Source of the DNA: Bacteroides sp. | GTDB lineage: Bacteria > Bacteroidota > Bacteroidia > Bacteroidales > Muribaculaceae | NCBI GenBank assembly: GCA_014802435.1 | Contig: JAAVCG010000005.1 | Coordinates: 1-64,000 of the forward strand | Direction of reading: 5' to 3' | Length of the DNA: 64,000 nt | Shown here: positions 46,749-64,000 of the stretch, piece by piece | Numbering within the stretch: the stretch's first letter is position 1 | How the letters are laid out: each line of letters starts with the position of its first letter | Notes under the pieces: generated by a model | The model's database searches: none | The model's input: only the letters and a program-made list of their open reading frames with translations | What the model was told of the DNA's origin: nothing | Position numbers and translations under genes: made by a program

Positions 46749-47435
46749 TCAGTTCATGATTTTTGTTTTATGGCGGATTGTCGTAAGTAGTTTTTGCAGG
46801 ATGGTTTGGGAGGAGATAGTTAGGTCGGTTTTGATGGGGTTATGGAAATATTTAGAGTTATTTGAGGATATTTCAATGTAATAGTTGCCTTGGGAGTTGG
46901 GCGAGCGGGAGATGGTTTTGACAATTCCAGTACCTATTTCGGGGATGGTTATTTGTTGGCCCGGGGTTATTTTAGATGCGATGTTTTGCGGGATATATGC
47001 GTAGTAGATTGCGTAGTCGGCCGGGCTTTCGTTGGCCACTTTAAGAAGTTCGGTTCCTGCGGGAATCGGGGTGTCTTCGTGGACGGGACCTATGTAGGTT
47101 ACACGTCCGGCTATTGGGGCGGTCGCGCAGGTGCCGTTGGTAAAGGCGAGCAGCGTGTCATTGGCTTTTACCGGGGCGTTGTCAGCGACATATATATGCT
47201 TGATTTTTACTGCCTCGGGCATTGAGATTATGGCGCTTCCGTCTGTGGCGAGGGGTGTGAGTTCGATGTCATAGCGTTCGGGAAGGCGGATGGTTGCACA
47301 CAAAGCCAGCGCGCCAATCAGTATCAGCGCAATCAGGGTTATCCCCCATCGCTGAATCCAAGAGGGGACTGCGCCCATAAGTTCCTGTACTTCTTCGCTA
47401 TGCAGGTCAAGGCCTTTCAGGTTTGGTTCGCTCAT
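46749..47435 (-). CDS. HlyD-like periplasmic adaptor (short) of the C39 exporter
   Basis: N-terminal TM, barrel/lipoyl-like segments; ATGA-type overlap with the exporter gene. Confidence 0.75.
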   Translation of the reverse strand: MSEPNLKGLDLHSEEVQELMGAVPSWIQRWGITLIALILIGALALCATIRLPERYDIELTPLATDGSAIISMPEAVKIKHIYVADNAPVKANDTLLAFTNGTCATAPIAGRVTYIGPVHEDTPIPAGTELLKVANESPADYAIYYAYIPQNIASKITPGQQITIPEIGTGIVKTISRSPNSQGNYYIEISSNNSKYFHNPIKTDLTISSQTILQKLLTTIRHKTKIMN

Positions 47436-49645
47436 GAGAGTCCGAGTTCAATTTGGTTTTTAACGAGTGTATAATATGTTCCTTGGCGGGCGAGGAGTTC
47501 GGAGTGCGTCCCTTCCTCGACCACTTTTCCGTGGTCCATGACGATGATTTTGTCGGCGTCAACAACGGTGCTTAGCCGATGGGCTACGATGACTACGGTC
47601 TTGCCTTTATAGAAGGTCTTGAGATTCTGCATGATGATGCTTTCGTTGTAGGCGTCGAGTGAGTTTGTCGCTTCGTCAAAGAAGATGAATTGCGGATTTT
47701 TGTAGACTGCGCGGGCAATCAGTATACGCTGTTTCTGACCGGAGCTGATGCCGTTACCCTCCATACCGATTTTGGTGTTATAGCCCATCGGCAGGGAAAG
47801 GATAAAGTCCTCGATATTGGCCACCCGGACGGCATGGGCCAGGCGCTCGGGGTCTATCTCGTCGGTCGAGACGGCGATATTGCGGGCTATGGTGTCAGAG
47901 AATATGAAACCCTCCTGCAAGACCGAGCCGGAGACCTCGCGCCACTTGTGAGGATTAAGCATATTGAGCGGCGTCGGACCGATTTTTATAGAGCCGTGCA
48001 TCGGTTCGTAGAAACCCTGAAGGAGTTTTACTATTGTGGTCTTGCCGCTTCCGCTTGCGCCGACAATGGCAGTCACTTTGTTCGGCTCGATGGTGAGGCT
48101 TACCCCGTCGAGGGCGTAGTCCCGCTCGGCCCCGCTATAACTGAATTTAACGTCTGTGAAGGTAATAGGCTTGTCCGTAGGTACTTCGGTCTGCTTTGAT
48201 TCGATGTCCTGTTCCTCGTCAGGCTGTTTGTGGATTTCGTTGAGGCGCTCAAGGCTGATTTTCGCATCCTGGACAGCTTGGGTGAGTCCGATTAGGTCGC
48301 CGATGGGGGCCGACAGTTGACCGATAATGTAGGTCATTGACATCATCATACCGAGGGTCATCTGCCCGTCAATCACGGCTTTGGCGGCGATGAAGGTTAT
48401 CAGGATGTTGGTGCTCTGCGTGAAGAAAGCGCTGCCCACTTGCTGAATCTGGCCGATTGCCAATCCGCGCAGCCCGACTTTGAAGAGTTTCACCTGAATC
48501 CGCTCCCATTCCCAGCGTTTCTGGCGCTCGCTGTTGTTGAGCTTGATTTCCTGCATGCCCTGAATCAACTGGATTACGGAACTCTGCTCGCTCGCCGAGA
48601 GATTGAAGCGTCGGATGTCAAGTTCGCGACGGTATTTCATGAAGCCCCATATCCAAAGGACATAGAGAGCGTTGCCGCCGAGGAAAATCAGCAGGATAGG
48701 CATATAATAGTAGCCCAAGATGGCGGCGAATATCAGGAAGTTGAAGGCTGAGAAGATGATGTTCAGCGAGTTGTTCATCAGCAGCGACTTGATGCGGGCA
48801 TGGTCGCCGATACGCTGCATCAGGTCGCCGGTCATCTTCGAGTCGAAGAAGCGCAGTGGCAACCTCATCAACTTTATCAGGAAGTCTGAAATCAGCGCGA
48901 TGTCAATCCGGGCGTTGACATGAAGTGTAATCCAACTTCGCAGAAACCCGACCATCAACTGCGAGACAAACAGAAAGAGCTGAGCCATCAGAATCATCGT
49001 TACGAACCCGACGTGACGGCCGCCGATGCCCACATCGACAAGCGCCTGAGTCAGAAACGGGAAAATCAACTGCAAGACGCTGCCGATGAGCAACGCCAGA
49101 CCCAACTGGACGAACTGCCGCTTATATGGCAGCAGGTAGCGTCCGAAGTGAGCCAGTCCGCGCCAGGTTGTGTCGCGGCTTTCGCCGGGCGATTCGTAGA
49201 ACTGAGGCGCCGGCTCAAGCAGCAGAACCGTGCCTAACTTTTCTCCATTGGAGTTGCCGGAACTGACCCAGCATTTTTCAAACTCCTTGGCGTCATAGTC
49301 AACAATCTGCGATGCCGGGTCGGCTATGCGGTAAATAGTCTTCCCGCGGCGTTTAAACACTTTGCAGAGGACTACAAAGTGTTTATAATTCCAATGGAGG
49401 ATACAAGGCGTCGGCGCCGCTTTGGTCAAGCGTTCAACAGAAGTGCGGATACCCGTCGAGCGCATACCGATGCTTTCGGCGGCATCGCTTAGTCCAAGCA
49501 TTGAGACACCCTCGCGGGTAATGAACGACCTCTTCTGAAGGGTCTCCAGTGAGTAATGCCGCCCGTAGTACTGCGCAACCATCCGCAGACAAGCCGGGCC
49601 GCAGTCCATCATATTTAGTTGATGATAATGAGGAAACTTTCGCAT
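47432..49645 (-). CDS. Peptidase C39-containing bacteriocin-type ABC exporter
   Basis: C39 N-terminus HYHQLNMMDCGPACLRMVAQYYG; ABC TM; Walker A VGASGSGKTTIVKLL; start at 49645 in a TAATG overlap with the preceding stop. Confidence 0.93.
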   Translation of the reverse strand: MRKFPHYHQLNMMDCGPACLRMVAQYYGRHYSLETLQKRSFITREGVSMLGLSDAAESIGMRSTGIRTSVERLTKAAPTPCILHWNYKHFVVLCKVFKRRGKTIYRIADPASQIVDYDAKEFEKCWVSSGNSNGEKLGTVLLLEPAPQFYESPGESRDTTWRGLAHFGRYLLPYKRQFVQLGLALLIGSVLQLIFPFLTQALVDVGIGGRHVGFVTMILMAQLFLFVSQLMVGFLRSWITLHVNARIDIALISDFLIKLMRLPLRFFDSKMTGDLMQRIGDHARIKSLLMNNSLNIIFSAFNFLIFAAILGYYYMPILLIFLGGNALYVLWIWGFMKYRRELDIRRFNLSASEQSSVIQLIQGMQEIKLNNSERQKRWEWERIQVKLFKVGLRGLAIGQIQQVGSAFFTQSTNILITFIAAKAVIDGQMTLGMMMSMTYIIGQLSAPIGDLIGLTQAVQDAKISLERLNEIHKQPDEEQDIESKQTEVPTDKPITFTDVKFSYSGAERDYALDGVSLTIEPNKVTAIVGASGSGKTTIVKLLQGFYEPMHGSIKIGPTPLNMLNPHKWREVSGSVLQEGFIFSDTIARNIAVSTDEIDPERLAHAVRVANIEDFILSLPMGYNTKIGMEGNGISSGQKQRILIARAVYKNPQFIFFDEATNSLDAYNESIIMQNLKTFYKGKTVVIVAHRLSTVVDADKIIVMDHGKVVEEGTHSELLARQGTYYTLVKNQIELGLS

Positions 49646-52614
49646 TATTTTCGCTTGGGGGTGATTGTCAGGTTGTATGTCAGTGATAGGAGGACGTAGG
49701 AAGGCTGGGTGTTGTAGCGGGTCATACTTATGGATTGAGTGTCGATTGAGCGCGAGAAGGTGGGAATTTGTTGGAGGATGTCGTAGCCGTGGATTTTGAT
49801 CAGCCAATTGCGGGCAAACTTCTTGCTGAGCGAGAGGTTCCATACCCAGTATGGACGGTCAATGTCGGAGTTACCGTAGCCGTAGCGGGTGTTTAGCGTC
49901 AGGGAGGTTTCGAGTCCGATGCCCCAGGGGAGTATGCCTTGGGCTTCGAGTGAGTAGTCAATGTCAGAGTAGCGGGCATTGGCAAATGAGTATTTTTCAG
50001 AGATTTGTCGGTTGAAGCGCATATCAACGTTTGCGCGGATATTGAAGTCGCGGATTGAGAATGACAGCGTGAATCTGTCGCCGAAAGTCCGGTAGTCGGA
50101 GCCTATCGTACCGGGATTGTCTATTTCTGATGAATAATCTACATTATGGCGGAGGCTATGGGAGAACTGGTTTTGAATGAAGAATCGGTTGCGAGGTCCG
50201 AAAGATTGACTGTAACCGAGCGACTGGGAAGTTGACCGGTTGCCGTTAACGTTCATCGGGGTTGAGATAATAGCTCCGGTTTCGGGGTTTAGGAATCGGG
50301 CTCTGGAAACGGCGTCATCAACTTTGCGGTAGTCGATGGACGCACTGATGGAGTGATGTCTTTTGCCGAACGACTTACGGTAGCTTAGCGAGTGGACCCA
50401 TGAACGGGTGTCTTTCAGATTCGGATTTCCCCTATAAATGTTCATCGGGTCAGTGGTATCTTCCTGATCATTGAGCCAGCGCATCTGAGGTAGAGTAAGG
50501 TATGTTGAGAACGAATAACTTAACCCTAAAATGTCAACTTTGGCCGAAGGAATCCACATTTCGGTATATTTCCGTAGGTTGATATGGCTGTGAACTCTGT
50601 TTTCTTGATATTGCCGGTAGTTCAGTTCATATTTGGAGTCAAGAATTATGCTCAGGTTCCAAAATCGGAGTCCAAGGTTTGCGCCGAATTTGTTGATATT
50701 TTCGGTTGAGCGGGAGTCATAACTGTTTATTTCGTCAAGAAGCATAGCCGACGAGCGGGTCAGCAGAGCCGGTTCCAGTTTGGCCTGATTGTCATAATAG
50801 CGGTTGAGGTCTCCCCGGTTGTCGTGGATAGAAAATAAATAGTCGATGGCGCCCTCAATGCTGAACTTTTTGTAAGTATATTTCGCCGAGCCGACGCTGA
50901 GGGTCAGATTCCCGGAGTTGTAGGTTCGCCGCTGTTCTGCCTTGGATATTTGGTTTAAATTATTGACAGCATCGTCAGGATAGATAATCTGTTGGGCGGA
51001 ATTATAGTCCAGGCGGGATGTCCGGAAGTTATAATTGCCATCAAATTTCATTCGGGCAATCGCGGGAATCAAGTAGGGGGCGAGCGCGTAACTGAGGTGG
51101 CCATTGCCTTCATAACTCCTTGACCGTTCATCGTTCTTCAAGGTCTGACGATATTTTATCGCCTCGGTCAGAGGGTCGGCCGACTCGCGATTTTCGAGGT
51201 CCGATTGGCGCGAATTGCTGCTTTCGTCTCTCTTTTCCCGTTCGGTATTCAGGTCAATGGAGGTCTTAAAAAGTCCGAAGCGGAAATGACGCGATAAAAT
51301 ATTATCCCAGCGCAGATCCATTGCGCGTGTCTTTCGGGCGTTTTCGTATGTGCCCAGACGAGAGCCTTCCGTAAAGAGTTCGGTTGTCTCACTTTGTGAT
51401 TCATAAAATCTTTTCCGGCCGCTGACGGTTAGATTCGAATTGAAGCCTTCTCTTTGCTGGTCTTTCCAATAGGTTTTAAATGTAGCACCCGCTTTGGCGG
51501 ACGTGACGAGCCCGGTATGAATGTCGGAAGCTGACCAACGGCCAGAGCCGTCGACCGACGCATCACTATTGACGTTGTTTCCCTGCAGATAAAGCCCATA
51601 CTCGACTCGGGAGTCATAGACCAAGGCGAAGATTCGGCCTAACCATTTCAACGACGGGTCATTGCTGACGTTCACTCCCCCACCAAGAGTATAGTTCGTA
51701 ATCAGCCCTCGGGAAAACTCCTTTTTCAGGTTAACATCAAGTACCAGCGGGTCATTTTCCTTGTCCCGCTCCTCGACTTTGCGGCTGTAGGCAATCTCGT
51801 CGGGCGCTTTTTTGTAGACCTTTATGTCTTTGACGGTATAGTGTGGTAGATTTTCAAGGGCGACTATTGGGTCTCCATTAAAAAACTTCTTACCGTTGAC
51901 AAGAAGTTCGCTGACCGGTTCACCATTGATGGTAATCTGACCACGGCGCGACAGAGAAGCCCCGGGCAAAGCCCTGATCAGGGCGTCAAGCATCGAGCCG
52001 TCGGGCAGATTGAACGCGTCGGCATTGTATACCAGCGTATCGCCGTTATGATACATCTTGATTTTCGTCGCCGTAACGGTCAGTTCCTTCAGCCTCAACG
52101 ATTTATCCTCGGGATAGATTCCATATTTTCCCGCATATAAGTAGGCGATATTGTCATAGACCTTTGCCTCATTCGTTTTCAGACGCATTGTGCGCCCCTC
52201 AAATCCCGGTTTTGTCAGACTGACAATCAGGACACTGTCATAAGGCACCGTAACTGAATATCTCACCGTATTGTTCATCGGGTCACTTAAATCAGGCAGG
52301 TCCATCCGGTCCCCCCTTTCCTTGGCGCGCTTTGCCTCGTCCATCATCTCCGTCTTGCGGTCAATCCAGCCGATGGAATCCACGGAGAATCCACCCGAAA
52401 GGCCGCTGACCGCCACCTTTACCCCGCTCAGAGGCAACTTATTCGACGAATTATAAATTTTCATCGAAAACTGAATCGAATCCGGTGTTTGCGCCTTATC
52501 CTGTGCCTTAGAGACAAGGAGAGTGCAAAAGATTATTAAGAAGGAAACATATAGTCGTATATGACCATATGTCCTATATTTAGCAAATTGTCGACTATAT
52601 GTTTCCATTGGCAT
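49645..52614 (-). CDS. TonB-type outer-membrane beta-barrel protein 1 (CarboxypepD_reg plus plug plus barrel)
   Basis: ELTVTATKIKMYHNGDTLVYNADAF plug-like region, C-terminal barrel SYVLLSLTYNLTITPKRK. Confidence 0.82.
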   Translation of the reverse strand: MPMETYSRQFAKYRTYGHIRLYVSFLIIFCTLLVSKAQDKAQTPDSIQFSMKIYNSSNKLPLSGVKVAVSGLSGGFSVDSIGWIDRKTEMMDEAKRAKERGDRMDLPDLSDPMNNTVRYSVTVPYDSVLIVSLTKPGFEGRTMRLKTNEAKVYDNIAYLYAGKYGIYPEDKSLRLKELTVTATKIKMYHNGDTLVYNADAFNLPDGSMLDALIRALPGASLSRRGQITINGEPVSELLVNGKKFFNGDPIVALENLPHYTVKDIKVYKKAPDEIAYSRKVEERDKENDPLVLDVNLKKEFSRGLITNYTLGGGVNVSNDPSLKWLGRIFALVYDSRVEYGLYLQGNNVNSDASVDGSGRWSASDIHTGLVTSAKAGATFKTYWKDQQREGFNSNLTVSGRKRFYESQSETTELFTEGSRLGTYENARKTRAMDLRWDNILSRHFRFGLFKTSIDLNTEREKRDESSNSRQSDLENRESADPLTEAIKYRQTLKNDERSRSYEGNGHLSYALAPYLIPAIARMKFDGNYNFRTSRLDYNSAQQIIYPDDAVNNLNQISKAEQRRTYNSGNLTLSVGSAKYTYKKFSIEGAIDYLFSIHDNRGDLNRYYDNQAKLEPALLTRSSAMLLDEINSYDSRSTENINKFGANLGLRFWNLSIILDSKYELNYRQYQENRVHSHINLRKYTEMWIPSAKVDILGLSYSFSTYLTLPQMRWLNDQEDTTDPMNIYRGNPNLKDTRSWVHSLSYRKSFGKRHHSISASIDYRKVDDAVSRARFLNPETGAIISTPMNVNGNRSTSQSLGYSQSFGPRNRFFIQNQFSHSLRHNVDYSSEIDNPGTIGSDYRTFGDRFTLSFSIRDFNIRANVDMRFNRQISEKYSFANARYSDIDYSLEAQGILPWGIGLETSLTLNTRYGYGNSDIDRPYWVWNLSLSKKFARNWLIKIHGYDILQQIPTFSRSIDTQSISMTRYNTQPSYVLLSLTYNLTITPKRK
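52543..52606. repeat. 15-bp perfect inverted repeat at the OMP1 gene start
   Basis: GGAAACATATAGTCG (52543-52557) / CGACTATATGTTTCC (52592-52606), 34-nt spacer. Confidence 0.9.
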
Positions 52615-52624
52615 CTAAGTTGCG

Positions 52625-52903
52625 TTAGTAGCCTTTACCGTTAAATTCGATCGAGAATGAACCGGAGTATGATTCACACTTCTTTGTGATGTTTTCGTTG
52701 CATCGACTTGCGCATGCAGTTTCACAACCAGCTGCATCTTTTGCGTCGGAAATAGTTAACGAACGTGTGTCAGGGTCTCCTAAAAGATTATAGGAGCACT
52801 TGCAGACAGGATTGGTTAAATCGCCTGCCAGGATGCCTTTGAGTTCCTCCGGGGTCAGAGGGGTGCCGATGAGTTCGGCAGCAGGAATGATGAGTTTGCT
52901 CAA
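52625..52903 (-). CDS. GG/AG-leader precursor peptide 1, six-Cys core (TTG start)
   Basis: MSKLIIPAAELIGTPLTPEELKGILAG leader; core with C-x-C ... C-x3-C-x3-C-x7-C. Confidence 0.8.
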   Translation of the reverse strand: MSKLIIPAAELIGTPLTPEELKGILAGDLTNPVCKCSYNLLGDPDTRSLTISDAKDAAGCETACASRCNENITKKCESYSGSFSIEFNGKGY

Positions 52904-52940
52904 GATTCTTTTAGGTTTAAATGGTTAATAATTGAGTTTA

Positions 52941-54809
52941 TTAGTGAGGCTTTTGGGCCTCGATTGTTATTGATTCTTTTAGGTATTGTTCTTTGGGGAG
53001 GTAGGGATTGTGTTTGTTGACGTTTTGCAGTTCCTGATGGGTGCTTTCGTTCGGAGAAGTGAGGTTTATATGGTCAAAACCTGATTCGGAGAGGAGAGTG
53101 CAGATTTCTGAGACAAGATGGAGGTAGGCCTTGCTGAGTCGGGCGATGAAAGCATTGATTTGTTTTGAATCAGGCATTTCGCGCAGAGCATCGGCGCGAT
53201 AGAAGGTCAGGCGCAGTGTGCCTCCGGGTGAAAGGATACGGAAACATTCGCTTAAAACTTTCTTGAGCCTTTCAGGTCCGAAATTTTCAATGAGATGCTC
53301 GGCAAAAATGAAGTCAAAGGAACTGTCCGGGGCCGGAATCGGTTGGGTCACATCAAGAAACGTCACTCCAAAGTCCGGTTCAACGTCAGTGTTGAGCCAT
53401 CCGGGCAACTGATTCATCCCGCAGCCCAATTGTAGCGCCTTTGGACCGTCGCCGGCAAGATATTCGGCAATGCTCACCGGGTTGGGTTGCTCCGCCGCAG
53501 TCTTGAACGCCATAGGATAATGGCGCAATTTGACGCGGGCATTGTCGAAGTGGCGGCGAATCATGGAGTCATGGTTGTTTGACTCAGTGATGTCCGAATA
53601 GCCGAAGTCGGTTTGCTCGGAGATGAATGGAACGGTAACCATCTTGGCGGTCAGAAGGGCGGATAGTTTCTCATCGGCCACGTCGCGCAGGCTGAACGGA
53701 GCGCTGAGTATCAGGTCGTAAGCGTTGCGGTAAATGACGATGAACTGTGTACACCAAAATCGGTCAATCCACGCCACACCGCCCGGTAGGGGGACGAGGT
53801 TAGAGAAGTCACCGATGCCGCCCGAAAGCATCTGCGCACCCATTGCTCCGGCGAGCATTATCTGATGCAGAAGGCGCTCGCGATTGTATGCTTCCGTAAA
53901 GAAGTGGTCGTCCTCACATATCAGCACGAAGTCTTCATCGCTCTCCTTGGCTTCGGTGATTATTCGACAGATACTTTGCCAAAGGCCGATAGCGCCGATT
54001 TCGTGGCGCGACGCCTCGACGATATGCAGGTCAAATTCCGGACGGCCCTCAAACTCCTTGCGGATATGCTCCAGGCGGTCTGTTCGCTCCGGAAGGTTGA
54101 TGACGTAAGTGGGGATGAACGCGCGGCTTACGTCGGCCGACATAATGGCGCGCAGGGTATCGGGCGATATGGCTGAGTAGTGATTACGGACCTTATGCAG
54201 CTGAGCAAGAAGGCTTTCATTCTTCTGGAAAAAGCGAGTTACGCGCCCTTCCTCCTCGTTGATACTGGTAGCGTCGGAATAGCCAAACTCGCGCTGAATA
54301 CTGATATAAGGCGCCATAACATATTTTCGTTTGGCCAAATAGGAGAGTTGAATATCAACGGCATAACCCTCAGTGGTCTTTGCGGCAAGAATCTTAGGGT
54401 AGCAGCGGCGGAAAATCACCGTAAACTGCATCCCGTTAAACCAGTTGACCCAAAAAAGTCCCGGCGCAACCTCAACGGGATTGCGACAAACGGACATTCC
54501 ACCCGACAGCAGGTCGGCGTCAAGACTCTGCGCAAGCCGGATATAGTGCAACAATGTATCCCGGCTATAAGCTTCGGTAAAGGCATGGTCATCCTCGCAG
54601 AAGATGAAAAACTCACTTCCCCGGCGCTCCTCTTCCTCGACTATGCCGTAGAAAGTCTGCCACAGCCCATAGGGACCGTTGCGATGCTCGATTGCCGGAA
54701 CGATATGCAACTCAAACTCATCGCGCCCCTCAAACTCGCCGATAATCGACTCCCTGCGCTCAGTCCGAGCCGCAAGATTCACAGCATATACTTGTAGTTT
54801 TTCTGTCAT
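52941..54809 (-). CDS. Tandem GT25-like glycosyltransferase domains fused to a SAM methyltransferase
   Basis: Two copies of ...EDDHxFTEAYxRxxLLHxIxxAxxxxAxxLSGG; C-terminal ALQLGCGMNQLPGWLNTDVEP...FAEHLIENF. Confidence 0.82.
   Translation of the reverse strand: MTEKLQVYAVNLAARTERRESIIGEFEGRDEFELHIVPAIEHRNGPYGLWQTFYGIVEEEERRGSEFFIFCEDDHAFTEAYSRDTLLHYIRLAQSLDADLLSGGMSVCRNPVEVAPGLFWVNWFNGMQFTVIFRRCYPKILAAKTTEGYAVDIQLSYLAKRKYVMAPYISIQREFGYSDATSINEEEGRVTRFFQKNESLLAQLHKVRNHYSAISPDTLRAIMSADVSRAFIPTYVINLPERTDRLEHIRKEFEGRPEFDLHIVEASRHEIGAIGLWQSICRIITEAKESDEDFVLICEDDHFFTEAYNRERLLHQIMLAGAMGAQMLSGGIGDFSNLVPLPGGVAWIDRFWCTQFIVIYRNAYDLILSAPFSLRDVADEKLSALLTAKMVTVPFISEQTDFGYSDITESNNHDSMIRRHFDNARVKLRHYPMAFKTAAEQPNPVSIAEYLAGDGPKALQLGCGMNQLPGWLNTDVEPDFGVTFLDVTQPIPAPDSSFDFIFAEHLIENFGPERLKKVLSECFRILSPGGTLRLTFYRADALREMPDSKQINAFIARLSKAYLHLVSEICTLLSESGFDHINLTSPNESTHQELQNVNKHNPYLPKEQYLKESITIEAQKPH
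52946..52961 (-). promoter_or_regulatory. Conserved stem-loop before precursor 1 (GAGGC-N6-GCCTC)
   Basis: Same element at 58195-58210 and 62899-62913. Confidence 0.5.
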
Positions 54810-54814
54810 TTCGG

Positions 54815-57673
54815 TTATTTCTTTTTCGGTTTGATGTCGAGGCGATAGGTGAGGGAGAGCAGGGCGTAAGATGATACTGTGTTGTAGCGGATCTCGGTGC
54901 GTCCTTGGGCGTTGACGGAGCGTTGGGTGTTGGGGAGTTGGTGGAGGATATCAAACCCTATGGCCTTGACAACCCATTGGTTACTCTTTCCGAAGGCTTT
55001 TGAGAGAGTGAGATTCCATACCCAGTCAGTGGTGTTCATCGCTTTTTCGGCATATCCGCGGCGGCAGTAGGCCATAAGTTCGGTGTCAAGGTCGATTCCC
55101 CAGACAAGGGGCGACGTGGCTGAGACGCCATAGTTGACGTCAAGGTAACTGAACGGGGCAAAAACGTCGCTGAGGCTGACAAGCCTGTTCCATTTCAGGT
55201 CAACAATGCCATTGACGCTGAACGCATTATGTCGCCATGTGAGCTTGAATTTTTCGCTTATTCTGTAGTTGTTGACTTTCAGAAGATCCAGCCCGGAATT
55301 GTTGTCGGACGAGTAATCAACACTGCGCATAAGGGTTGGTATAATAGAGTTGCTGAAATAGAAGCTCTCTCTACGGTCAAGTGCCCGCTGATATGAAATG
55401 TTACCATAGACATTGAAGTTGCCGTTGATGTTGCGAGGTTGCAGTGTTGTCAGACCCGATTGGCGGTCGTAGGTTTGTGCCAATGCAATCAAATTGTTTG
55501 CTTGTTCGTATCCGGCACTGATTGACCAGCGTTGCATATGAGGCAGACCTTCTTGACTGATTTCGGCTTTTAGATTGTGAACGGAAGCTTTCGTCAACTG
55601 GGGATTTCCCAGACGAATCAATAGCGGATTACTCGTGTCTGAAACTTGAAGCATTTCCATCATTTCAGGGAGAATCTGCCTCAAGGACCAAGATATTCTC
55701 CATCCGATTTTGGATTTATTTACGGAGTAAAGCGCGATAATTGGCTGGAAGGTGATATCATTCTTATTCAGACGAAGGAGTTCGTTATAGCGGTAATCGT
55801 TAATTGTGCGGTTATGGAATTCCAAAGGGAGGTCCATCTGGAGCTGAGCCTTGAATATCCGTAATATGAAGGAAGCTGATAGAGAGTTCTTTTTGTTAAG
55901 GCGTGTAGTACTGTAGCTATTTATTTCGTCTAAGACCCATGTATTGGCTGCTGAGGGAACTATCTGTTCTTGGAAGACGCCAGACTCAACTTCGCGACGC
56001 TTGAGCGCACGCGATCCGCTTAAATGTTCCTGCTCGTAGCTGTATGTCAGGTGGCCGTCCATATAACCGTTGATTGGTTTATCCGAACCGAAGCTATGCC
56101 TGAAAGAAAGGGGACTGAAGCTCGCTCCATAGTGATAGCTGTGGCTTGGTTGATGGCCTTGTTGCTGCTCGTCGAGATTATAAGTGGCGTTGAGAGGATA
56201 GTGGAGGTAGTCCCAATTGTTAGCGTTTTCGTTGGCAGAGTTATATTTGCCGAATACGTTGAACAGGACATATCGGTTCGCAAACTTTAAAGGGCTACGA
56301 ACTGCAAAATCGGTCGATAAAGATACGCCCCAACGCTCTTCTTTTTGGTTGTTGAAGACCTTGCGGCTATAGAGTAAAGGAGTACCATCTGTAATACCTT
56401 CTTTGCCGTCTGTTTTTTCAATATTTTCTGAGTATTTGCAGCTGTTATGATGATAGAATGCTGCGGGCTTAACATTTAGCCAACCCCAGTCCCATTTTTT
56501 GTTCATGTTGCCGTTCCATTTCAGTTCGGTTGAATTGTTGTGGGAGTTGCTCGCCGAGCGGCTGAACGTATTTCCCCCCTCGAGGTATGTCTCGGTAAAT
56601 GTCTGCCTCCCTAATTTAACGTTACGTCTCTCGGCTTGTAGAGTCGTGTTGAAACTAAGCCGTTTCGATTTGTTTTCATTGCTATAATCAACTCCGGCAG
56701 ATTTGACGGTTATTTCGCCGCTTCCAGGGTCGGTTTTTATCCAGGTTCCACTGCTTGATGCTTCGCGCGTATCGTTCAGATTATTAGCGTTGGCATATAC
56801 TGATATGCTCTGAACCGGAGTGTAATACATAGCGAATACTCGCCCTAACCACTTCAAGTCAGCGCGATCATAGAGCGTTGATCCCAGACCTAATTCATAG
56901 TTGGAAATCAATCCCTTAGCATATTCTCGCTTAAGTTTAACGTCCATAACCAATGGGTCCTCCTTTGTCTTCGCCATTCCATTGAGTCCCTTCATTTCGT
57001 CCTCTTTACGATAAACCTGAATCTTATTTACCGTATAGGCGGGCAGATTGCTCAGAGCAACGCGCGGATCTCCCTTGAAGAAGTCTCGGCCGTTGACCAT
57101 TAGCGACGATACAAACTCGCCGTTAATCGTTATGCGCCCGTTTTCGTGCAACTCTGCGCCGGGGAGCGCCTTTATGAGATTATCGAGCATCGAACCCTCC
57201 GAGAGCTGAAAAGCCGCTGCATTATACTCGATAGTATCCCCCTTCATGACCATCTTGACCCGTGTAGCCGTCGCCGTGACCTCATTCAGCAATTTGGCGT
57301 TCATTTTCGGGAACATCTCTACGTCAGGAAGCCACAAAAGAGCTCCGGGTTTTAAAGCTAATTTAGTCGGCTTAAACTCAATAACCTTATTGTCATAACC
57401 ACTTACAATAAAAGTCAATGAGTAATATTTCATCATAGGGACCTGAACAACAAATCTCCCGTTATCACCTTCTACATTGATCTTAACCGAATCTGCAATT
57501 AGTTTATTTCCTGTCGTTCGGATTTCGAAAATATGATTACCTAATATCGGTTCTCCATTAAAACCATCAATTACACTTCCGGCAAAATATACAGAGTCAA
57601 TCTTCTCTGAGTGAGTAGCAAAACAAAAGATTGAGTTCGTCAATAATAATATTATAACTAAAAATACTCTCAT
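54815..57673 (-). CDS. TonB-type outer-membrane beta-barrel protein 2
   Basis: Paralog of 49645-52614 and 59915-62857; EVTATATRVKMVMKGDTIEYNAAAFQL; C-term SYALLSLTYRLDIKPKKK. Confidence 0.82.
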   Translation of the reverse strand: MRVFLVIILLLTNSIFCFATHSEKIDSVYFAGSVIDGFNGEPILGNHIFEIRTTGNKLIADSVKINVEGDNGRFVVQVPMMKYYSLTFIVSGYDNKVIEFKPTKLALKPGALLWLPDVEMFPKMNAKLLNEVTATATRVKMVMKGDTIEYNAAAFQLSEGSMLDNLIKALPGAELHENGRITINGEFVSSLMVNGRDFFKGDPRVALSNLPAYTVNKIQVYRKEDEMKGLNGMAKTKEDPLVMDVKLKREYAKGLISNYELGLGSTLYDRADLKWLGRVFAMYYTPVQSISVYANANNLNDTREASSSGTWIKTDPGSGEITVKSAGVDYSNENKSKRLSFNTTLQAERRNVKLGRQTFTETYLEGGNTFSRSASNSHNNSTELKWNGNMNKKWDWGWLNVKPAAFYHHNSCKYSENIEKTDGKEGITDGTPLLYSRKVFNNQKEERWGVSLSTDFAVRSPLKFANRYVLFNVFGKYNSANENANNWDYLHYPLNATYNLDEQQQGHQPSHSYHYGASFSPLSFRHSFGSDKPINGYMDGHLTYSYEQEHLSGSRALKRREVESGVFQEQIVPSAANTWVLDEINSYSTTRLNKKNSLSASFILRIFKAQLQMDLPLEFHNRTINDYRYNELLRLNKNDITFQPIIALYSVNKSKIGWRISWSLRQILPEMMEMLQVSDTSNPLLIRLGNPQLTKASVHNLKAEISQEGLPHMQRWSISAGYEQANNLIALAQTYDRQSGLTTLQPRNINGNFNVYGNISYQRALDRRESFYFSNSIIPTLMRSVDYSSDNNSGLDLLKVNNYRISEKFKLTWRHNAFSVNGIVDLKWNRLVSLSDVFAPFSYLDVNYGVSATSPLVWGIDLDTELMAYCRRGYAEKAMNTTDWVWNLTLSKAFGKSNQWVVKAIGFDILHQLPNTQRSVNAQGRTEIRYNTVSSYALLSLTYRLDIKPKKK

Positions 57674-57787
57674 AGGAAGTTTTCAACACTTAATTTATAT
57701 AAGATTAGAGTTTGATATTCGCAAGATTTGCTTGACAACAAGGGGATTAGAGGGTTCTATAAGAATTGATGAGCAGGGTCGAAGATT

Positions 57788-57820
57788 TAGATAAACTGAT
57801 TTTCAAAACCTGTTTATCTA
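57788..57820. repeat. Inverted repeat TAGATAAAC-N15-GTTTATCTA between precursor 2 and OMP2
   Basis: 9-bp perfect arms. Confidence 0.65.
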
Positions 57821-57830
57821 TGTCAGAAAC

Positions 57831-57876
57831 TAAAAGGAGGGGCCCTCAATATTAGAATTATAATTTGAGGAGCCCC
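57831..57876 (-). terminator. Rho-independent-type terminator after precursor 2
   Basis: Minus strand GGGGCTCCTCAA-loop-TTGAGGGCCCC followed by TCCTTTTA. Confidence 0.7.
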
Positions 57877-57898
57877 ACCCCAAATGGGAACATGTGTG

Positions 57899-58153
57899 TT
57901 AACTATCTATTGCTGAGAATGAGATAGAGTAATCGTAGCAGTTCTCCGTTTTAGAACAGAGATCTTTGCATTCTGACCGGCATTCTTTTTCGGTTGTAAT
58001 GCCATTAAGTTCCTTGCCAACTCCGGTAGCTCCTAACACTTTCAGGTGACAAGAGCATGAGTAAGTGGTTGCTCCGGCAATGATGCCTTTGAGTTCCTCC
58101 GGTGTCAGAGGGGTGCCGATGAGTTCGGCAGCAGGAATGATGAGTTTGCTCAT
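57899..58153 (-). CDS. GG/AG-leader precursor peptide 2, six-Cys core
   Basis: MSKLIIPAAELIGTPLTPEELKGIIAG leader; CSC...CRSECKDLCSKTENC core. Confidence 0.82.
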   Translation of the reverse strand: MSKLIIPAAELIGTPLTPEELKGIIAGATTYSCSCHLKVLGATGVGKELNGITTEKECRSECKDLCSKTENCYDYSISFSAIDS

Positions 58154-58194
58154 GATTCTTTGGTTTTTAAATGGTTAAAATTTAGTTGATTAGT

Positions 58195-58210
58195 GAGGAT
58201 TTCGGGCCTC
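58195..58210 (-). promoter_or_regulatory. Conserved stem-loop before precursor 2 (GAGG-N8-CCTC)
   Basis: Homologous position to 52946-52961 and 62899-62913. Confidence 0.5.
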
Positions 58211-58218
58211 GTTTTTGG

Positions 58219-59790
58219 TCAGGTGTAGAGGTAAATGAGGTCTTCGACAGTGTAGCCGGCGGGGAGTGGCTTGCCGTCAATAAGGATTGTTGGGGTCGCT
58301 GATATTCCCGCTTTTGCGGTCCATTTGTCGTGACGGATGAGTTCATCGACTATCTCCTTGGCGGTTTCCGCGGGGATTTCCTGCTCAGGAGGATTGGCAA
58401 AGGGATGCTCCTTGGGGTGACCGTTTGTGTACCAGTCTGTTAGCAATTTCCATGTCGCTTGTTGGCCTTCAGTCTTGTAGGTTTCGACAATTCGTTTGTT
58501 TACGGGCGCGAGGTCGGGGTTGAAGTAGGTAAAGAAATATTGAATTCTGAACCCGGCGTCAATCAGTGGCTCAAGGCGCGAGTGCATCCTTCCGCACGGA
58601 TTGCAGAATGGGTTGCCGACAATGGTTATCAGCGGCAATTCCGAGTCAGGATTGCCGAAGAAGATGCTTGAAGCCTCCTCGCCCTCAACGGGATACGTCT
58701 CCGGGGAGTCACGCAGCAGTGAGTCCCAGATATGACTGTCAAACTTTATTTGGCGCAGTGATGTATTCTCCTTTTTGTCCTTCTCTGCAGCCGTATAATA
58801 ATCACTCAGATATCGCAGTGTGCTCATTATCAGCCAGTAAGCTGCGGCCAATGCCGCAAGGGCGCAAAGTAGAGGAAGAGTCAGTATAACATCCCGATAT
58901 ATGCCCCCGACAATCATGACTACGAACGCAACCCATACGCAAACCATGACCAGGAGGCAAAGCGCACACCACGACTTACGCTTAAACCCTTGGTAAGCAA
59001 CGCTCCATAGCGTTAAAGGTAGCGCAAGGGCCACGGCGATACTTACCGCTCCACCCAATCCCTGCGGACTACTAAGGAGCGTTGCCACTAAATTTACGCC
59101 GAAAAAGGCTATGCCGGCAATGCTCAGGTCAAATATTCCGAACAGTAGAGGCCCCGGGCCTGGGGATTTGTGCGGGTCAGTGCAACCGGCTGAGTTCAAC
59201 AGGCTGCAAATCTTGTCGGCAGCGGTGCTGTTGATATTCAGTTGCTTCTTAAGGAGCAAAACAGAGAGCCATGTTCCTAAAATATAAACAAGGCCGAGAG
59301 ATATGCTCAATGCCGAGAGTCTGCCGGCGACCGCTGCGCCCACAAGCAAGACAATAAGCCCGAGGCTGGACAAGACTGTCTGCAACCGATTGCTACGCTC
59401 TTCCCGGCGGTGGTCTTTCAGATTAGGTTCAGAAGAGGATTCCGATGCCTTAACTATCATTACTGTGCCGGTCCAGGCCTGCTTAAAAGTATCAAGCGGC
59501 GCCGAAAATGCACCGGATGAGGTCCGATATTTAACCTCATCGTCGGTTACCGAGGTGACTACCACGCAGTCGCCCGAGGCCTGGGCGACAAACGGACATG
59601 GAATCCGCCCAATCTGCTCCTTATTAGAAACGCGCAGCGACGTATGGTCAACGCCATAGCGGTTCAGAATCTGCCCGATGGCCCATAGCGAAGCGCCGTA
59701 AGGCATCTCCCGCTCTACTTGCCGGAGGTAGAGCGGAGTGAACGGCACTTTCAATTCCGAAAGAATGATTTCAATAATTGGCTGCGGCAT
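58219..59790 (-). CDS. Degenerate C39-like domain, VKOR membrane domain and DsbA-like thioredoxin fusion
   Basis: VKOR-type WCALC; thioredoxin-type FCNPCGRMH and cis-Pro ISATPTILIDGKPL; N-terminus C39-like without catalytic Cys. Confidence 0.85.
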   Translation of the reverse strand: MPQPIIEIILSELKVPFTPLYLRQVEREMPYGASLWAIGQILNRYGVDHTSLRVSNKEQIGRIPCPFVAQASGDCVVVTSVTDDEVKYRTSSGAFSAPLDTFKQAWTGTVMIVKASESSSEPNLKDHRREERSNRLQTVLSSLGLIVLLVGAAVAGRLSALSISLGLVYILGTWLSVLLLKKQLNINSTAADKICSLLNSAGCTDPHKSPGPGPLLFGIFDLSIAGIAFFGVNLVATLLSSPQGLGGAVSIAVALALPLTLWSVAYQGFKRKSWCALCLLVMVCVWVAFVVMIVGGIYRDVILTLPLLCALAALAAAYWLIMSTLRYLSDYYTAAEKDKKENTSLRQIKFDSHIWDSLLRDSPETYPVEGEEASSIFFGNPDSELPLITIVGNPFCNPCGRMHSRLEPLIDAGFRIQYFFTYFNPDLAPVNKRIVETYKTEGQQATWKLLTDWYTNGHPKEHPFANPPEQEIPAETAKEIVDELIRHDKWTAKAGISATPTILIDGKPLPAGYTVEDLIYLYT

Positions 59791-59914: not shown

Positions 59915-62857
59915 TTATTTTCGCTTGGGTTTGATGTCGAGGCGATAGGAGAGAGTTAGCAGGGCATAGGCCGGCTGGGAGTTGAGGCGGGTTTCGGAGC
60001 GGCCCTGGGCGTTGAGGGTACGTTGTACGGTTGGGAGCTGTTGAAGCAGGTCGAAGCCGATGGCCTTGACGGTCCATTGCTTTGCGCTGCCGAAGGACTT
60101 ACTGATTTCGAGGTTCCAGACCCAGTCCGTGCGGTTCATAGTTGCGTCGCCATAACCGCGGCGGCAGTAGGCCATCAGGTCGGTGTCAATGTAGACTTCT
60201 CCCGGGATTTTTGCGCGTCCACCGATGCCATAATTAATGTCCAGATAGTCAAATGGCAGGAAAAGTCCGTCGAGGCTCTTCATCTGAGTCCAGCTGACGT
60301 TGACCTTGGCATTCAATTTGAAATCTGCCGAAAAGTTAAAACTCAGGCGGAAATCATCACGGATTGTCCAACTATTGACGGCTACGGCCACAGGAATGTC
60401 TGAATCTGATGAATAATCAACGTTATGTCTAAATCGCGGTATAAATGAATTGTTAAATTCGAGATTATTGTTTCGGGTCAGGAAAGAGAACGTTTCAAGT
60501 TTAATGTTTGCTGTCCAGTTTCCGTTGATATTGGCGGGTTGCCAAGTCGTAACGCCTGTTTCGCGATTATAGGTGCGCGCCATTGCCAATGCGTCGTCAA
60601 CCTTACTCCATCCCGCCGATAAATCAAACTGGGTCTTTAATCCTGTGCTTTTTTTATGACGGATGTAAGCTGATGCTGTATAAGTCTTCGCGCGCTTGAG
60701 GTTGGGGTTGCCGAGATTGGTGACCATCGGATTTGACGAGTCGCGGACATCAAGCATCTTCAGCATATCAGGCAACTCCTGATAGAAATTTCCGTCAAAG
60801 CCCCAGCTAAGCCCGGGAGTCCAGTAATCGCCATAGTCGAATTTGATTCTGGCGGAGTTTTTCCAATCATTGCGCGCAACTTCGCGCATGGTTTGCATGC
60901 GGAAGTCGGTCAGTCGACGAATTGAATATGTGGAGGCTCCCGAGAACGAAAGGCCATATTTGCCGCCAAAACTATAGGCGATATAGGCATTAATTCCGTT
61001 GTTCCATTCCCGGCGGGTGGTGTGATAACTATTTGCTTCATCAAGAAACCAACTTCCGAATTCTGACATAGAGGGCGCGTCTGAATCCGACTCTTGGAGA
61101 TTCATTTCTTCGAGAGAGCGTCGGCCGAGATTGTATTTTTGCTCATATTGATAGCCCAATCGTAAATTGAGGAATTTCGTTTCTGAAAGAGCAATCCTAT
61201 ATCTGTCCCATGATGGGGATATGGAGAAATTATAGTCTCTTGACGGGGCCAAATCATGTTGCAGGAGGTTGATGTCGCGATTCAGAATATTGGGATAAAT
61301 AATGAGGTCTGAGCTTTTGGAAGACACTCGCGAATTATTGTGAGCACCTTGGATTTCAATGCCGGCGCTACCATATTTGGATGGCAAGCAGTATAAGTTG
61401 AAGAGCAAGCGGCTCTTGACACCAAATTTTTGATCGCGGCTGAGCAGACGCTGACTGCGATAATAGAGCATATCTTGAGCAAAGTCTATTGAACCGGGGG
61501 CGGTGAAGTTCTCCGGGAGCATAGAGTTGCTTTCGGCCGAGGAGGAGGTGCGTCGGCCTGTACCTTTATCAAAGTTTATGTCCGTGCGGAACCAAATGCG
61601 CCCGATTCTATCAAAGCGGCGTGAGATTTCCCCTCCCCAGTCAATACTCCATGAACTGCGGCGAGCGGAATTCTTTGAACGGCTAAACGTGTTCCCACCT
61701 TCCATAAATTGCTCGCTTATGGCCGTTTGACCGGTCAGGCTCGTCTGGCGAACGATATTGAATGTCGTATTTATGCCGTTATAGCTTTGGTCGGCCCAGT
61801 CCGTGTTAAACTCTATTCCGGCGCGTTTGGTCGTGGTCTCGCCGGCGGAAACCTGCGGTTTATACCATTGACCTTTTGAACCGGCTTTTGCCGGGTCGTT
61901 AAGATTATTGGCCGAGGCATGAAGCGCAAGATAATTAAGTTTGGTATAGCGCATTGCAAACAGTCGGCCCATCCAGCGGGTATCCCACGCATTTTTCAGC
62001 GACGTGCCGCCACCGATTTCGCCGTTGGCAAGCCATCCGCCCATATATTCCTTTTTGAGGTTTACGTCCATGACCAAGGGGTCATTACTCTTATCGCGCT
62101 CAATGTTTCTCCCGCGGAATTCCTCCGGCTCGCGGCGATAGACCTGCACGTTTTTGACGGTAAACGCCGGGAGACTGCGCAAGGCAACTTGCGGGTCACC
62201 CTGAAAGAACTTGCGACCGTTGACCAACAGTTGATCTACAAACTGCCCGTTGACCGTAATCCGCCCGTTATCATCTAATTGCGCCCCCGGAAGTTCACGA
62301 ATCAGATTGTCAAGCATCGAACCCTCCGGAAGTTGAAAGGCCGTAGCGTCATATTCCAAGGTGTCGCCTTTCATCACCATCTTAACCTTTGTGGCCGTGA
62401 CGGTTACTTCATTCAGTCGATGTTCCTTTTGCGGGCGTCTTAGATATATTGCGCCCAACTCTACAAATGAAACCTTTTCCCCGGAGAATATCACCGATTT
62501 TTTTTCTACGTCAAACTCTTCCGTTTGATAGCCCTTTGCAGAGATTGTTACCTGATATTTGTCATGCTCGGGTACCGTTCCCTCATAGCGAACGATTTCA
62601 TAGGCTGAACGATAGCTCTCAGAAATTTCATATCCGATAGAATCTACCAACACGACTCCAAGAGAATCCCGTATAGTGATTTTTGCGTTTTTTAATGGTA
62701 GTTCCGTAACAGCGTCAAAAACGCTCCCAATTACGTTTATTGAGTTCTTTGGCTCACTGCATAGGCAGTACCCCCATATCATCATTGCGATTATTGTCAT
62801 TCCTATCCGCCTAAACGGATAGGAATGACATGTCGTTACTTTAATGAGTTTGCTCAT
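59915..62857 (-). CDS. TonB-type outer-membrane beta-barrel protein 3 with chimeric 5' end
   Basis: Plug EVTVTATKVKMVMKGDTLEYDATAFQL; C-term AYALLTLSYRLDIKPKRK; N-terminal MSKLI from a precursor gene; probable original start at 62800 (MTIIAMM). Confidence 0.82.
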   Translation of the reverse strand: MSKLIKVTTCHSYPFRRIGMTIIAMMIWGYCLCSEPKNSINVIGSVFDAVTELPLKNAKITIRDSLGVVLVDSIGYEISESYRSAYEIVRYEGTVPEHDKYQVTISAKGYQTEEFDVEKKSVIFSGEKVSFVELGAIYLRRPQKEHRLNEVTVTATKVKMVMKGDTLEYDATAFQLPEGSMLDNLIRELPGAQLDDNGRITVNGQFVDQLLVNGRKFFQGDPQVALRSLPAFTVKNVQVYRREPEEFRGRNIERDKSNDPLVMDVNLKKEYMGGWLANGEIGGGTSLKNAWDTRWMGRLFAMRYTKLNYLALHASANNLNDPAKAGSKGQWYKPQVSAGETTTKRAGIEFNTDWADQSYNGINTTFNIVRQTSLTGQTAISEQFMEGGNTFSRSKNSARRSSWSIDWGGEISRRFDRIGRIWFRTDINFDKGTGRRTSSSAESNSMLPENFTAPGSIDFAQDMLYYRSQRLLSRDQKFGVKSRLLFNLYCLPSKYGSAGIEIQGAHNNSRVSSKSSDLIIYPNILNRDINLLQHDLAPSRDYNFSISPSWDRYRIALSETKFLNLRLGYQYEQKYNLGRRSLEEMNLQESDSDAPSMSEFGSWFLDEANSYHTTRREWNNGINAYIAYSFGGKYGLSFSGASTYSIRRLTDFRMQTMREVARNDWKNSARIKFDYGDYWTPGLSWGFDGNFYQELPDMLKMLDVRDSSNPMVTNLGNPNLKRAKTYTASAYIRHKKSTGLKTQFDLSAGWSKVDDALAMARTYNRETGVTTWQPANINGNWTANIKLETFSFLTRNNNLEFNNSFIPRFRHNVDYSSDSDIPVAVAVNSWTIRDDFRLSFNFSADFKLNAKVNVSWTQMKSLDGLFLPFDYLDINYGIGGRAKIPGEVYIDTDLMAYCRRGYGDATMNRTDWVWNLEISKSFGSAKQWTVKAIGFDLLQQLPTVQRTLNAQGRSETRLNSQPAYALLTLSYRLDIKPKRK
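62795..62830. repeat. 15-bp perfect inverted repeat at the OMP3 gene start
   Basis: TGTCATTCCTATCCG-cctaaa-CGGATAGGAATGACA. Confidence 0.93.
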
Positions 62858-62898
62858 GATTCTTTTGGTTAAAGTAGTTAATAGATTGATTTATTAGT

Positions 62899-62913
62899 GA
62901 GGCACGTGGCCTC
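62899..62913 (-). promoter_or_regulatory. Conserved stem-loop before the lost third precursor (GAGGC-N5-GCCTC)
   Basis: Homologous to 52946-52961 and 58195-58210. Confidence 0.5.
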
Positions 62914-62915
62914 GT

Positions 62916-63174
62916 TTTTGGTCAGGTGGTAAATAAGGTTTTCAACGGTGTAGCCGGAGGGGAGTGGCTTGCCGTCGATGAGGATAGTTGGGGTGGAGGA
63001 GATTCACGCTTTTGCGGTCCATTTGTCGTGACGGATGAGTTCATCTACTATCTCCTTGGCGGTTTCGATGGGGATTTCCTGCTCAGGAGGATTGGCAAAG
63101 ATTTGCCGGAGGTAGAGCGGAGTGAACGGTACTTTCAATTCCGAAAGAATGATTTCAATAATTGGCTGCGGCAT
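62916..63174 (-). pseudogene. Remnant of a second C39-like/VKOR/DsbA gene with internal deletion and nonsense codon
   Basis: N-terminal 24 codons (MPQPIIEIILSELKVPFTPLYLRQ) joined in frame to IFANPPEQEIPIETAKEIVDELIRHDKWTAKA then TGA at 63004-63006; C-terminal homology continues past the stop. Confidence 0.92.
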
Positions 63175-63345: not shown

Positions 63346-63441
63346 CTAAGGCATATTTGAAGCCCTATTGCTACAGGATGGTTGCCGGCGAGAAATGCCC
63401 CCCGTTAGACTAAATTGGTGATAATGATGGAAATTTTGCAT
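63346..63441 (-). pseudogene. 5' stub of a second C39 ABC exporter
   Basis: MQNFHHYHQFS resembles MRKFPHYHQLN of the intact exporter and has the same TAATG junction with the upstream barrel gene; unrelated sequence follows, then TAG. Confidence 0.6.
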
Positions 63442-64000
63442 TATTTTCGTCTGGGTTTTATGTCAAGGCGGTAGGTGAGGGAGAGCAGGGCGTAGGAGGG
63501 CTGGGAGTTATAGCGGGTTTCGGTTCGCCCCTGAGCGTTGACCACCTGGCGAATGGTCGGAAGTTGGTGGAGCAGGTCAAAGCCGATGGCTTTGACGGTC
63601 CATTGCTTGGCGGAACCGAAAGTCTTGCTCAGTTGGAGGTTCCATACCCAGTCGGTCGTGTTCATTGTTGGCTCTTCGTAGCCACGGCGACAATATACCA
63701 TCAGTTCGGTTTGTATGTCGACACCCCAAAGCAATGGCGTCGAGGCTAATATTCCATAGTTTACGTGCATAAAATAAAATGGCGCAAAAACCCGGTCAAG
63801 ACTTACAAGTCTATTCCAGTTAAAGTCGACTTTGCCGGAGATGGTTGCGTTCCCCGGCGTCCATTTAAGTTCAAAGTTGTTATTAATTTGCCAGTGATTT
63901 ACTTTCAGAACATTAGGCACGTCCGAATCAGTTGAGTAGTCCGCAGAACGCAATAACTCGCCTTTAAGAGAGTTTGAAAGGTAGACCCGTTCGCTTTTAT
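63441..64000 (-). CDS. TonB-type outer-membrane beta-barrel protein 4 (C-terminal part; runs off the window)
   Basis: C-term SYALLSLTYRLDIKPRRK; WVWNLQLSKTFGSAKQWTVKAIGFDLLHQLPT shared with OMP2/OMP3. Confidence 0.85.
   Translation of the reverse strand, partial: KSERVYLSNSLKGELLRSADYSTDSDVPNVLKVNHWQINNNFELKWTPGNATISGKVDFNWNRLVSLDRVFAPFYFMHVNYGILASTPLLWGVDIQTELMVYCRRGYEEPTMNTTDWVWNLQLSKTFGSAKQWTVKAIGFDLLHQLPTIRQVVNAQGRTETRYNSQPSYALLSLTYRLDIKPRRK

What the first reader, a model, noticed from the sequence alone, without database searches (positions are those of the whole stretch)
52823..58153. Leader DNA nearly identical, including synonymous sites, while cores are unalignable at DNA level
The leader-coding stretch of both precursors (about 75 bp) differs at about two bases, one of which is the start codon, whereas the core-coding halves diverge strongly. 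Protein-level selection alone would not preserve synonymous positions. This points to gene conversion, or recent cassette duplication with rapidly diversifying cores, using the leader as a recombination anchor.
Basis: partly seen in the sequence, partly recalled or inferred. Interest (0 to 1): 0.7.

Follow-up and report, generated by a model that had tools for sequence, protein, structure and literature searches.

The report
Shared peptide leader with swapped cores
In a gut-type Bacteroidales bacterium, a row of secreted-peptide genes keeps nearly the same export-tag DNA in every copy while the peptide part, and often the membrane-protein gene behind it, has been exchanged wholesale by recombination, which lets one export machine serve many different peptides.

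Summary
The two precursors (52625-52903 and 57899-58153, minus strand) differ at 2 bases in the first 72 and at 6 in the 81-bp leader, while core synonymous sites are saturated (pS 0.16 against 0.70; Fisher P = 1.4e-4). The array continues past the window: four intact leader-core genes, one broken copy and one leader stub, each next to its own outer-membrane-protein (OMP) gene. A sister species (G006) carries the same locus. There, two slots keep the flanking genes, 5'UTR and leader (leader dS 0.22-0.23, like the species background 0.08-0.47), but hold a different core and OMP: core dS 1.3 in one, unalignable in the other. The exchange starts at or just after the GG cleavage site and ends at the OMP stop codon. 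A 125-bp identical tract ending in the leader, remnants of VKOR and transporter genes, and the leader stub point to tandem operon duplication plus homologous recombination or gene conversion. Leader synonymous sites diverge as fast as the adjacent UTR, so no special codon constraint is needed. The cores are old alleles swapped in, not rapidly mutating ones. The product is probably a GG-leader, disulfide-rich, bacteriocin-like peptide (untested). Conserved-leader/variable-core precursors are known; the cassette boundaries with a linked OMP are new.

The parts
52625..52903 (-). precursor A (92 aa, TTG start); leader 52823-52903, core 52628-52822 with the six framework Cys
57899..58153 (-). precursor B (84 aa, ATG start); leader 58073-58153, core 57902-58072 with the six framework Cys
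52904..52969 (-). 5'UTR of precursor A, homologous to the other leader copies
58154..58219 (-). 5'UTR of precursor B, homologous to the other leader copies
62844..62923 (-). leader stub: precursor 5'UTR plus ATGAGCAAACTCAT (first 14 bp of the leader) joined in frame to the OMP5 gene; leader remainder and core lost
   Evidence: self-blast and alignment
58219..59790 (-). VKOR/thioredoxin fusion with a C39-like N-terminal domain; probable disulfide-forming enzyme, complete copy
   Evidence: Pfam VKOR 3.7e-9, Peptidase_C39 7e-7; 94% aa identity to the G006 copy
62926..63174 (-). VKOR pseudogene with residues about 26-463 deleted, duplicated block
   Evidence: same deletion again at C5:70265-70519
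54815..57673 (-). OMP6, beta-barrel OMP homolog paired with precursor B
   Evidence: homologous to OMP7; one OMP per precursor
49645..52614 (-). OMP7, PF14905 beta-barrel OMP paired with precursor A
   Evidence: Pfam OMP_b-brl_3 6.8e-18
59915..62857 (-). OMP5, behind the leader stub; its ortholog in G006 sits behind precursor A' next to the transporter
63441..64000 (-). OMP4, 3' part in the window (gene runs to C5:66233), paired with precursor C beyond the window
63415..63455 (-). remnant of the start of the ABC-transporter gene behind OMP4, a scar of an earlier operon copy
   Evidence: blastn 83% over 41 bp; a 93%, 102-bp version lies behind OMP2 outside the window
52941..54809 (-). glycosyltransferase-25-like plus methyltransferase fusion (GT/MT) between the two slots
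   Evidence: Pfam Glyco_transf_25 and Methyltransf_11
47432..49642 (-). C39-peptidase ABC exporter with active-site motif DCG; shared exporter and leader peptidase
   Evidence: Pfam Peptidase_C39 2.5e-29, ABC_membrane, ABC_tran; intact and 98% identical in G006
46749..47435 (-). small HlyD-like membrane protein
   Evidence: position and sequence only; no Pfam match above cut-off

Best explanation
This is a multi-copy operon for GG-leader, cysteine-rich secreted peptides served by one C39-ABC exporter and one VKOR oxidoreductase. The ancestral unit (VKOR - UTR/leader/core - OMP - ABC exporter) was duplicated in tandem; redundant VKOR and exporter copies decayed to fragments. The UTR/leader block and the OMP 3' end are the stretches shared by the units, so homologous recombination or gene conversion between units, and with related strains, exchanges what lies between them: the core and usually the OMP. 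The leader is thereby kept uniform by shared recent ancestry, with protein-level selection for recognition by the single exporter, while the cores are old divergent alleles. Shown: leader/core dS contrast, slot exchange in a sister species, junction positions, the identical tract, the VKOR and transporter scars. Inferred: RecA-type recombination as the agent, GG cleavage and export, disulfide formation, antibacterial activity, and a core-specific role of the OMP.
For: Leader pS 0.15-0.33 among paralogs against core pS 0.70-0.81 and OMP pS 0.72-0.81. In the same slot across two species: B/B' leader dS 0.23, core dS 1.30; A/A' leader dS 0.22, core unalignable; background ortholog dS 0.08-0.47. 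Slot A: identity stays near 90% to the end of the leader and then collapses; at the 3' side it switches from OMP5-type (mostly 95-100%) to OMP7/exporter-type within the last ~50 bp of the OMP gene. Slot B: homology resumes at the start of the GT/MT gene. In G006 a VKOR fragment differs from the intact VKOR at 30 sites in 399 bp but at none in the last 125 bp, which end in the leader (permutation 6 in 20000). Exporter-start scars lie behind OMP2 and OMP4 and two VKOR pseudogenes share one deletion. Contrast case: in L081, a related but older two-copy array, leader pS is 0.68, near the saturation of its core (0.80).
Against: Only two species carry this leader family (2 of 397 family genomes; one other locus in the GTDB scan), so independent exchanges are few. 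The leader offers only about 21 synonymous sites. B and B' cores are related (45% aa) while their OMPs are not (24%), and over six pairs core and OMP similarity do not correlate (r = -0.44), so core and OMP do not always travel together. Both genomes are multi-contig assemblies, G006 a MAG, and its exact 125-bp repeat could in principle be an assembly effect. Nothing about export, disulfides or killing was tested.
Confidence: 0.78

Rival explanations
1. The leader DNA itself is a constrained nucleic-acid element (translation control, RNA structure, codon choice at the start), so synonymous sites are held by selection rather than by shared descent.
For: Position-specific codons are largely kept in seven copies.
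Against: Leader pS (mean 0.23) is close to divergence of the adjacent 5'UTR (mean 0.19) and lies within the species dS range; the related array L081 keeps leader protein similarity while its leader synonymous sites are near saturation.
Confidence: 0.08
2. Simple recent tandem duplication of the whole precursor gene, followed by very fast point mutation of the core under diversifying selection, without exchange.
For: Tandem operon scars are present; four cores share a six-Cys framework.
Against: Core dS is saturated along with dN, and the linked OMP paralogs are equally saturated over more than 850 codons; the C core has hardly changed between species where it survives; OMP5 occupies different slots in the two genomes.
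Confidence: 0.07
3. A dedicated switching system (site-specific recombinase or retroelement) moves cores in and out at the leader.
For: Exchange starts close to the GG site in two slots, and the stub and the G006 remnant both break 10-14 bp into the leader.
Against: No recombinase or reverse-transcriptase gene was recognised among the array ORFs read; flanking homology suffices for ordinary recombination. No family search aimed at recombinases was run.
Confidence: 0.04

Closest known systems
Bacteroidetocins (Coyne et al. 2019, PMC6671954)
   Same: Bacteroidales; double-glycine leader; ABC transporter with C39 peptidase; thiol oxidoreductase and small TM protein in the cluster; Cys-containing mature peptide
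   Different: leader 15-16 aa there, 27 aa here; mature 42-48 aa, four Cys in the best-studied ones there, 57-65 aa with a six-Cys framework in most cores here; no array with one large OMP gene per precursor is described in the passages read
NHLP/Nif11 and prochlorosin precursors (PMC2887384; PMC10783134)
   Same: conserved leader ending at GG, hypervariable core, several tandem precursors served by one enzyme set; recombination proposed
   Different: long leaders of other families; lanthionine or azole chemistry; no linked OMP described in the passages read
Pneumococcal blp bacteriocin-immunity region (PMC4860687)
   Same: double-glycine peptides, one exporter, variable modules between conserved flanks, recombination of leaders and modules proposed
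   Different: Gram-positive, small immunity genes rather than large OMPs, quorum-sensing control
Conotoxin precursor families (partly recalled; PMC3823881 on cysteine codons)
   Same: conserved precursor region and position-specific codon conservation beside a hypervariable mature peptide
   Different: animal genes with other proposed causes for the codon conservation

Membership tests
double-glycine leader peptides exported by C39-ABC transporters | leader ending in a GG-type site with conserved hydrophobic/acidic positions before it (L..EEL..I.AG) | tested here: met
   LT.EELKGI(L/I)AG in all leader copies
double-glycine leader peptides exported by C39-ABC transporters | C39-peptidase ABC exporter in the same cluster | tested here: met
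   Pfam Peptidase_C39 2.5e-29 with ABC domains at 47432-49642
double-glycine leader peptides exported by C39-ABC transporters | cleavage after the GG-type site and secretion | not testable with these tools
   needs mass spectrometry
bacteroidetocins | leader of 15-16 aa and mature peptide of 42-48 aa | tested here: not met
   leader 27 aa, cores 57-65 aa
bacteroidetocins | killing of Bacteroidales through BamA | not testable with these tools
   no assay possible
NCBIfam TIGR04117 (Cys-Xaa-Xaa-Xaa repeat radical SAM target) | score above the curated cut-off of 50 bits | tested here: not met
   19.5 and 11.4 bits
PAN/apple domain | score above the Pfam cut-off of 27 bits | tested here: not met
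   B core 16.8 bits, other cores no match
PAN/apple domain | PAN fold | tested here: inconclusive
   core model pLDDT about 90 but no significant structural match
PF14905 outer-membrane beta-barrel family (OMPs) | score above the Pfam cut-off of 27 bits | tested here: met
   OMP7 65 bits, OMP1 37, OMPb' of G006 54; OMP2 to OMP6 give no match and are assigned by 30-44% aa identity to the others

The most novel reading that the evidence does not exclude
The locus works as a natural cassette-assortment system: the UTR/leader and the OMP 3' end are maintained as homology anchors, so a peptide core and its OMP partner can be replaced as a module from other units or strains, giving a lineage a changing set of secreted peptides from one exporter.
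Probability: 0.3. Interest if true: 0.72.

Novelty: new variant of a known kind. Interest (0 to 1): 0.52.

Why it matters
Conserved leaders beside variable cores are usually put down to recognition by shared enzymes. Here the DNA record shows another cause, recombination between units, with mapped junctions at the cleavage site and at the end of a linked OMP gene. If it holds across strains it explains how gut Bacteroidales change their secreted peptides without changing the export machine, and the linked OMP becomes a testable candidate for peptide-specific export or self-protection.

Tried and rejected
Codon bias as the cause: rejected, because the same residue uses different codons at different positions. 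Replicates through VKOR homologs (L050-L067): these sit beside glycosyltransferases or other genes, and no comparable leader array was recognised; L057 has repeats but of another kind. Replicates through the exporter (L078-L095): a strict leader pattern found none; reading the ORFs of six of them gave L081, used as the contrast case. Core structure: the confident part gave no significant PDB match (best Foldseek E 0.29; best Z 5.3), so no fold family is claimed. OMP structure: model too poor to use (mean pLDDT 34.9), and no PDB sequence match. A mobile hairpin at the stub: its sequence is unique in the genome. The PAN_4 hit is below cut-off and limited to one core.

Full report
What is there. 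On the minus strand of the window, precursor A (52625-52903) and precursor B (57899-58153) share a 27-codon leader, MSKLIIPAAELIGTPLTPEELKGI(L/I)AG, followed by cores of 65 and 57 residues. They differ at 2 of the first 72 bp and 6 of 81 bp in the leader. The resemblance continues upstream through the 5'UTR. The window is part of contig C5 (526 kb) of an assembly of 45 contigs, 98.6% complete.

The whole array. In the direction of transcription (high to low coordinates) the locus reads: VKOR fragment - OMP1 - broken precursor E - OMP2 - exporter scar - VKOR pseudogene - precursor D - OMP3 - precursor C - OMP4 - exporter scar - VKOR pseudogene - leader stub fused to OMP5 - VKOR - precursor B - OMP6 - glycosyltransferase/methyltransferase (GT/MT) - precursor A - OMP7 - C39-ABC exporter - HlyD-like protein. 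OMP1 to OMP4 lie wholly or partly beyond the window. Five leader starts exist in this genome, all in this array.

Leader against core inside the genome. By Nei-Gojobori counting, leader pS between A, B, C and D is 0.15-0.33 (mean 0.23), core pS 0.70-0.81, and OMP pS 0.72-0.81 with 29-44% amino-acid identity (the OMP figures include the G006 copy OMPb'). For A against B the leader/core contrast gives Fisher P = 1.4e-4. The adjacent 66-bp UTRs of A to D differ by a mean of 19% (from the matrix), so the leader's synonymous sites are about as divergent as the untranslated DNA next to them. Codons differ between positions for the same residue but are largely kept by position across copies, the mark of shared descent rather than of codon preference.

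The sister species. The leader family occurs in 2 of 397 searched genomes of the family, both in this genus; the GTDB scan found one further locus, contig CAMWNI010000015.1, which matches G006 contig 15 in length and position. In G006 the exporter is intact and 98% identical. Ortholog dS between the two: VKOR 0.15, GT/MT 0.31, exporter 0.36, HlyD 0.47, OMP4 0.08, OMP5 0.23.

Exchange in two slots. Slot B (VKOR - leader - [core, OMP] - GT/MT): leader dS 0.23, core dS 1.30 and dN 0.57, and a different OMP. Identity falls from 0.90-0.97 to 0.67 and lower about 90 bp after the ATG, that is, a few codons after the cleavage site, and homology resumes at the GT/MT start. Slot A (GT/MT - leader - [core, OMP] - exporter): leader dS 0.22, core unalignable. 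The G006 slot holds the ortholog of OMP5, which in the window's genome sits elsewhere behind the leader stub. The switch from OMP5-type to OMP7/exporter-type sequence falls in the last ~50 bp of the OMP gene. Since dS rises along with dN in core B/B' (dN/dS about 0.44), the core was more likely replaced by an old divergent version than changed by fast point mutation. The C core gives the opposite case: its G006 remnant, which has lost the leader, is nearly identical where it survives.

Gene conversion and duplication scars. In G006 a VKOR fragment and the intact VKOR differ at 30 sites over 399 bp but at none in the last 125 bp, which run through the UTR into the leader (a run that long arose in 6 of 20000 random placements); the two UTRs are identical over 66 bp. 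This is the clearest conversion tract, with the reservation that G006 is a MAG. In the window's genome two VKOR pseudogenes share the same internal deletion, and the first ~100 bp of the exporter gene region survive behind OMP2 at 93% identity and ~40 bp behind OMP4 at 83%. These are scars of whole-operon tandem copies.

A contrast case. In genome G240 (locus L081) a related exporter (56% identity) serves two precursors with another GG leader. Its leader pS is 0.68 and its core pS 0.80, alongside saturated neighbours. A shared exporter therefore does not by itself preserve leader synonymous sites; recent shared descent does.

What the product may be. Four cores share six cysteines (C33, C35, C58, C62, C66, C72 of B). 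The core of B is modelled with pLDDT near 90 as strand-strand-helix-strand from a four-sequence alignment, with no significant known fold. A VKOR/thioredoxin fusion and a C39-ABC exporter fit a secreted, disulfide-bonded, bacteriocin-like peptide, as in bacteroidetocin clusters (PMC6671954), but leader length, core length and cysteine number differ, so it is not filed as a bacteroidetocin. The OMPs are PF14905-type or homologs of these; whether they export, protect or receive the peptide is unknown, and core and OMP similarities are not positively correlated over the six units (r = -0.44).

Verdict. Recombination with the leader as an anchor is well supported by two slots in two species, one conversion tract and several scars. 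Fast diversification of cores and special protection of leader codons are not supported. Known parallels are prochlorosin/NHLP precursors (PMC2887384, PMC10783134) and the pneumococcal blp region (PMC4860687); the exchange of a core with a linked large OMP gene between mapped junctions appears to be a new variant in the papers searched.

Noticed in passing
62797-62828: Perfect 13-bp-arm hairpin (TCATTCCTATCCG-TTTAGG-CGGATAGGAATGA) just inside the OMP5 gene next to the leader-stub fusion; it occurs once in the genome.
   Followed up: partly
52901-52903: Precursor A starts with TTG where the other copies have ATG, which may lower its expression.
   Followed up: no
58219-59790: The VKOR protein carries a C39-like N-terminal domain without the cysteine expected at the active site; it may bind the leader instead of cutting it.
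   Followed up: no
L018:3585-5021: In G006 an integrase-like gene lies about 5 kb upstream of the first array remnant (named from its sequence only; no family search run).
   Followed up: no
L081:4398-19784: Another genome of the family has a two-unit array with radical-SAM and cytidylyltransferase genes beside GG-leader precursors, and a decayed duplicate of a 433-aa gene.
   Followed up: partly
L057:4602-8192: Tandem repeats including two related Cys-containing small ORFs (88 and 84 aa) downstream of a glycosyltransferase and VKOR pair, another possible duplicated precursor.
   Followed up: no
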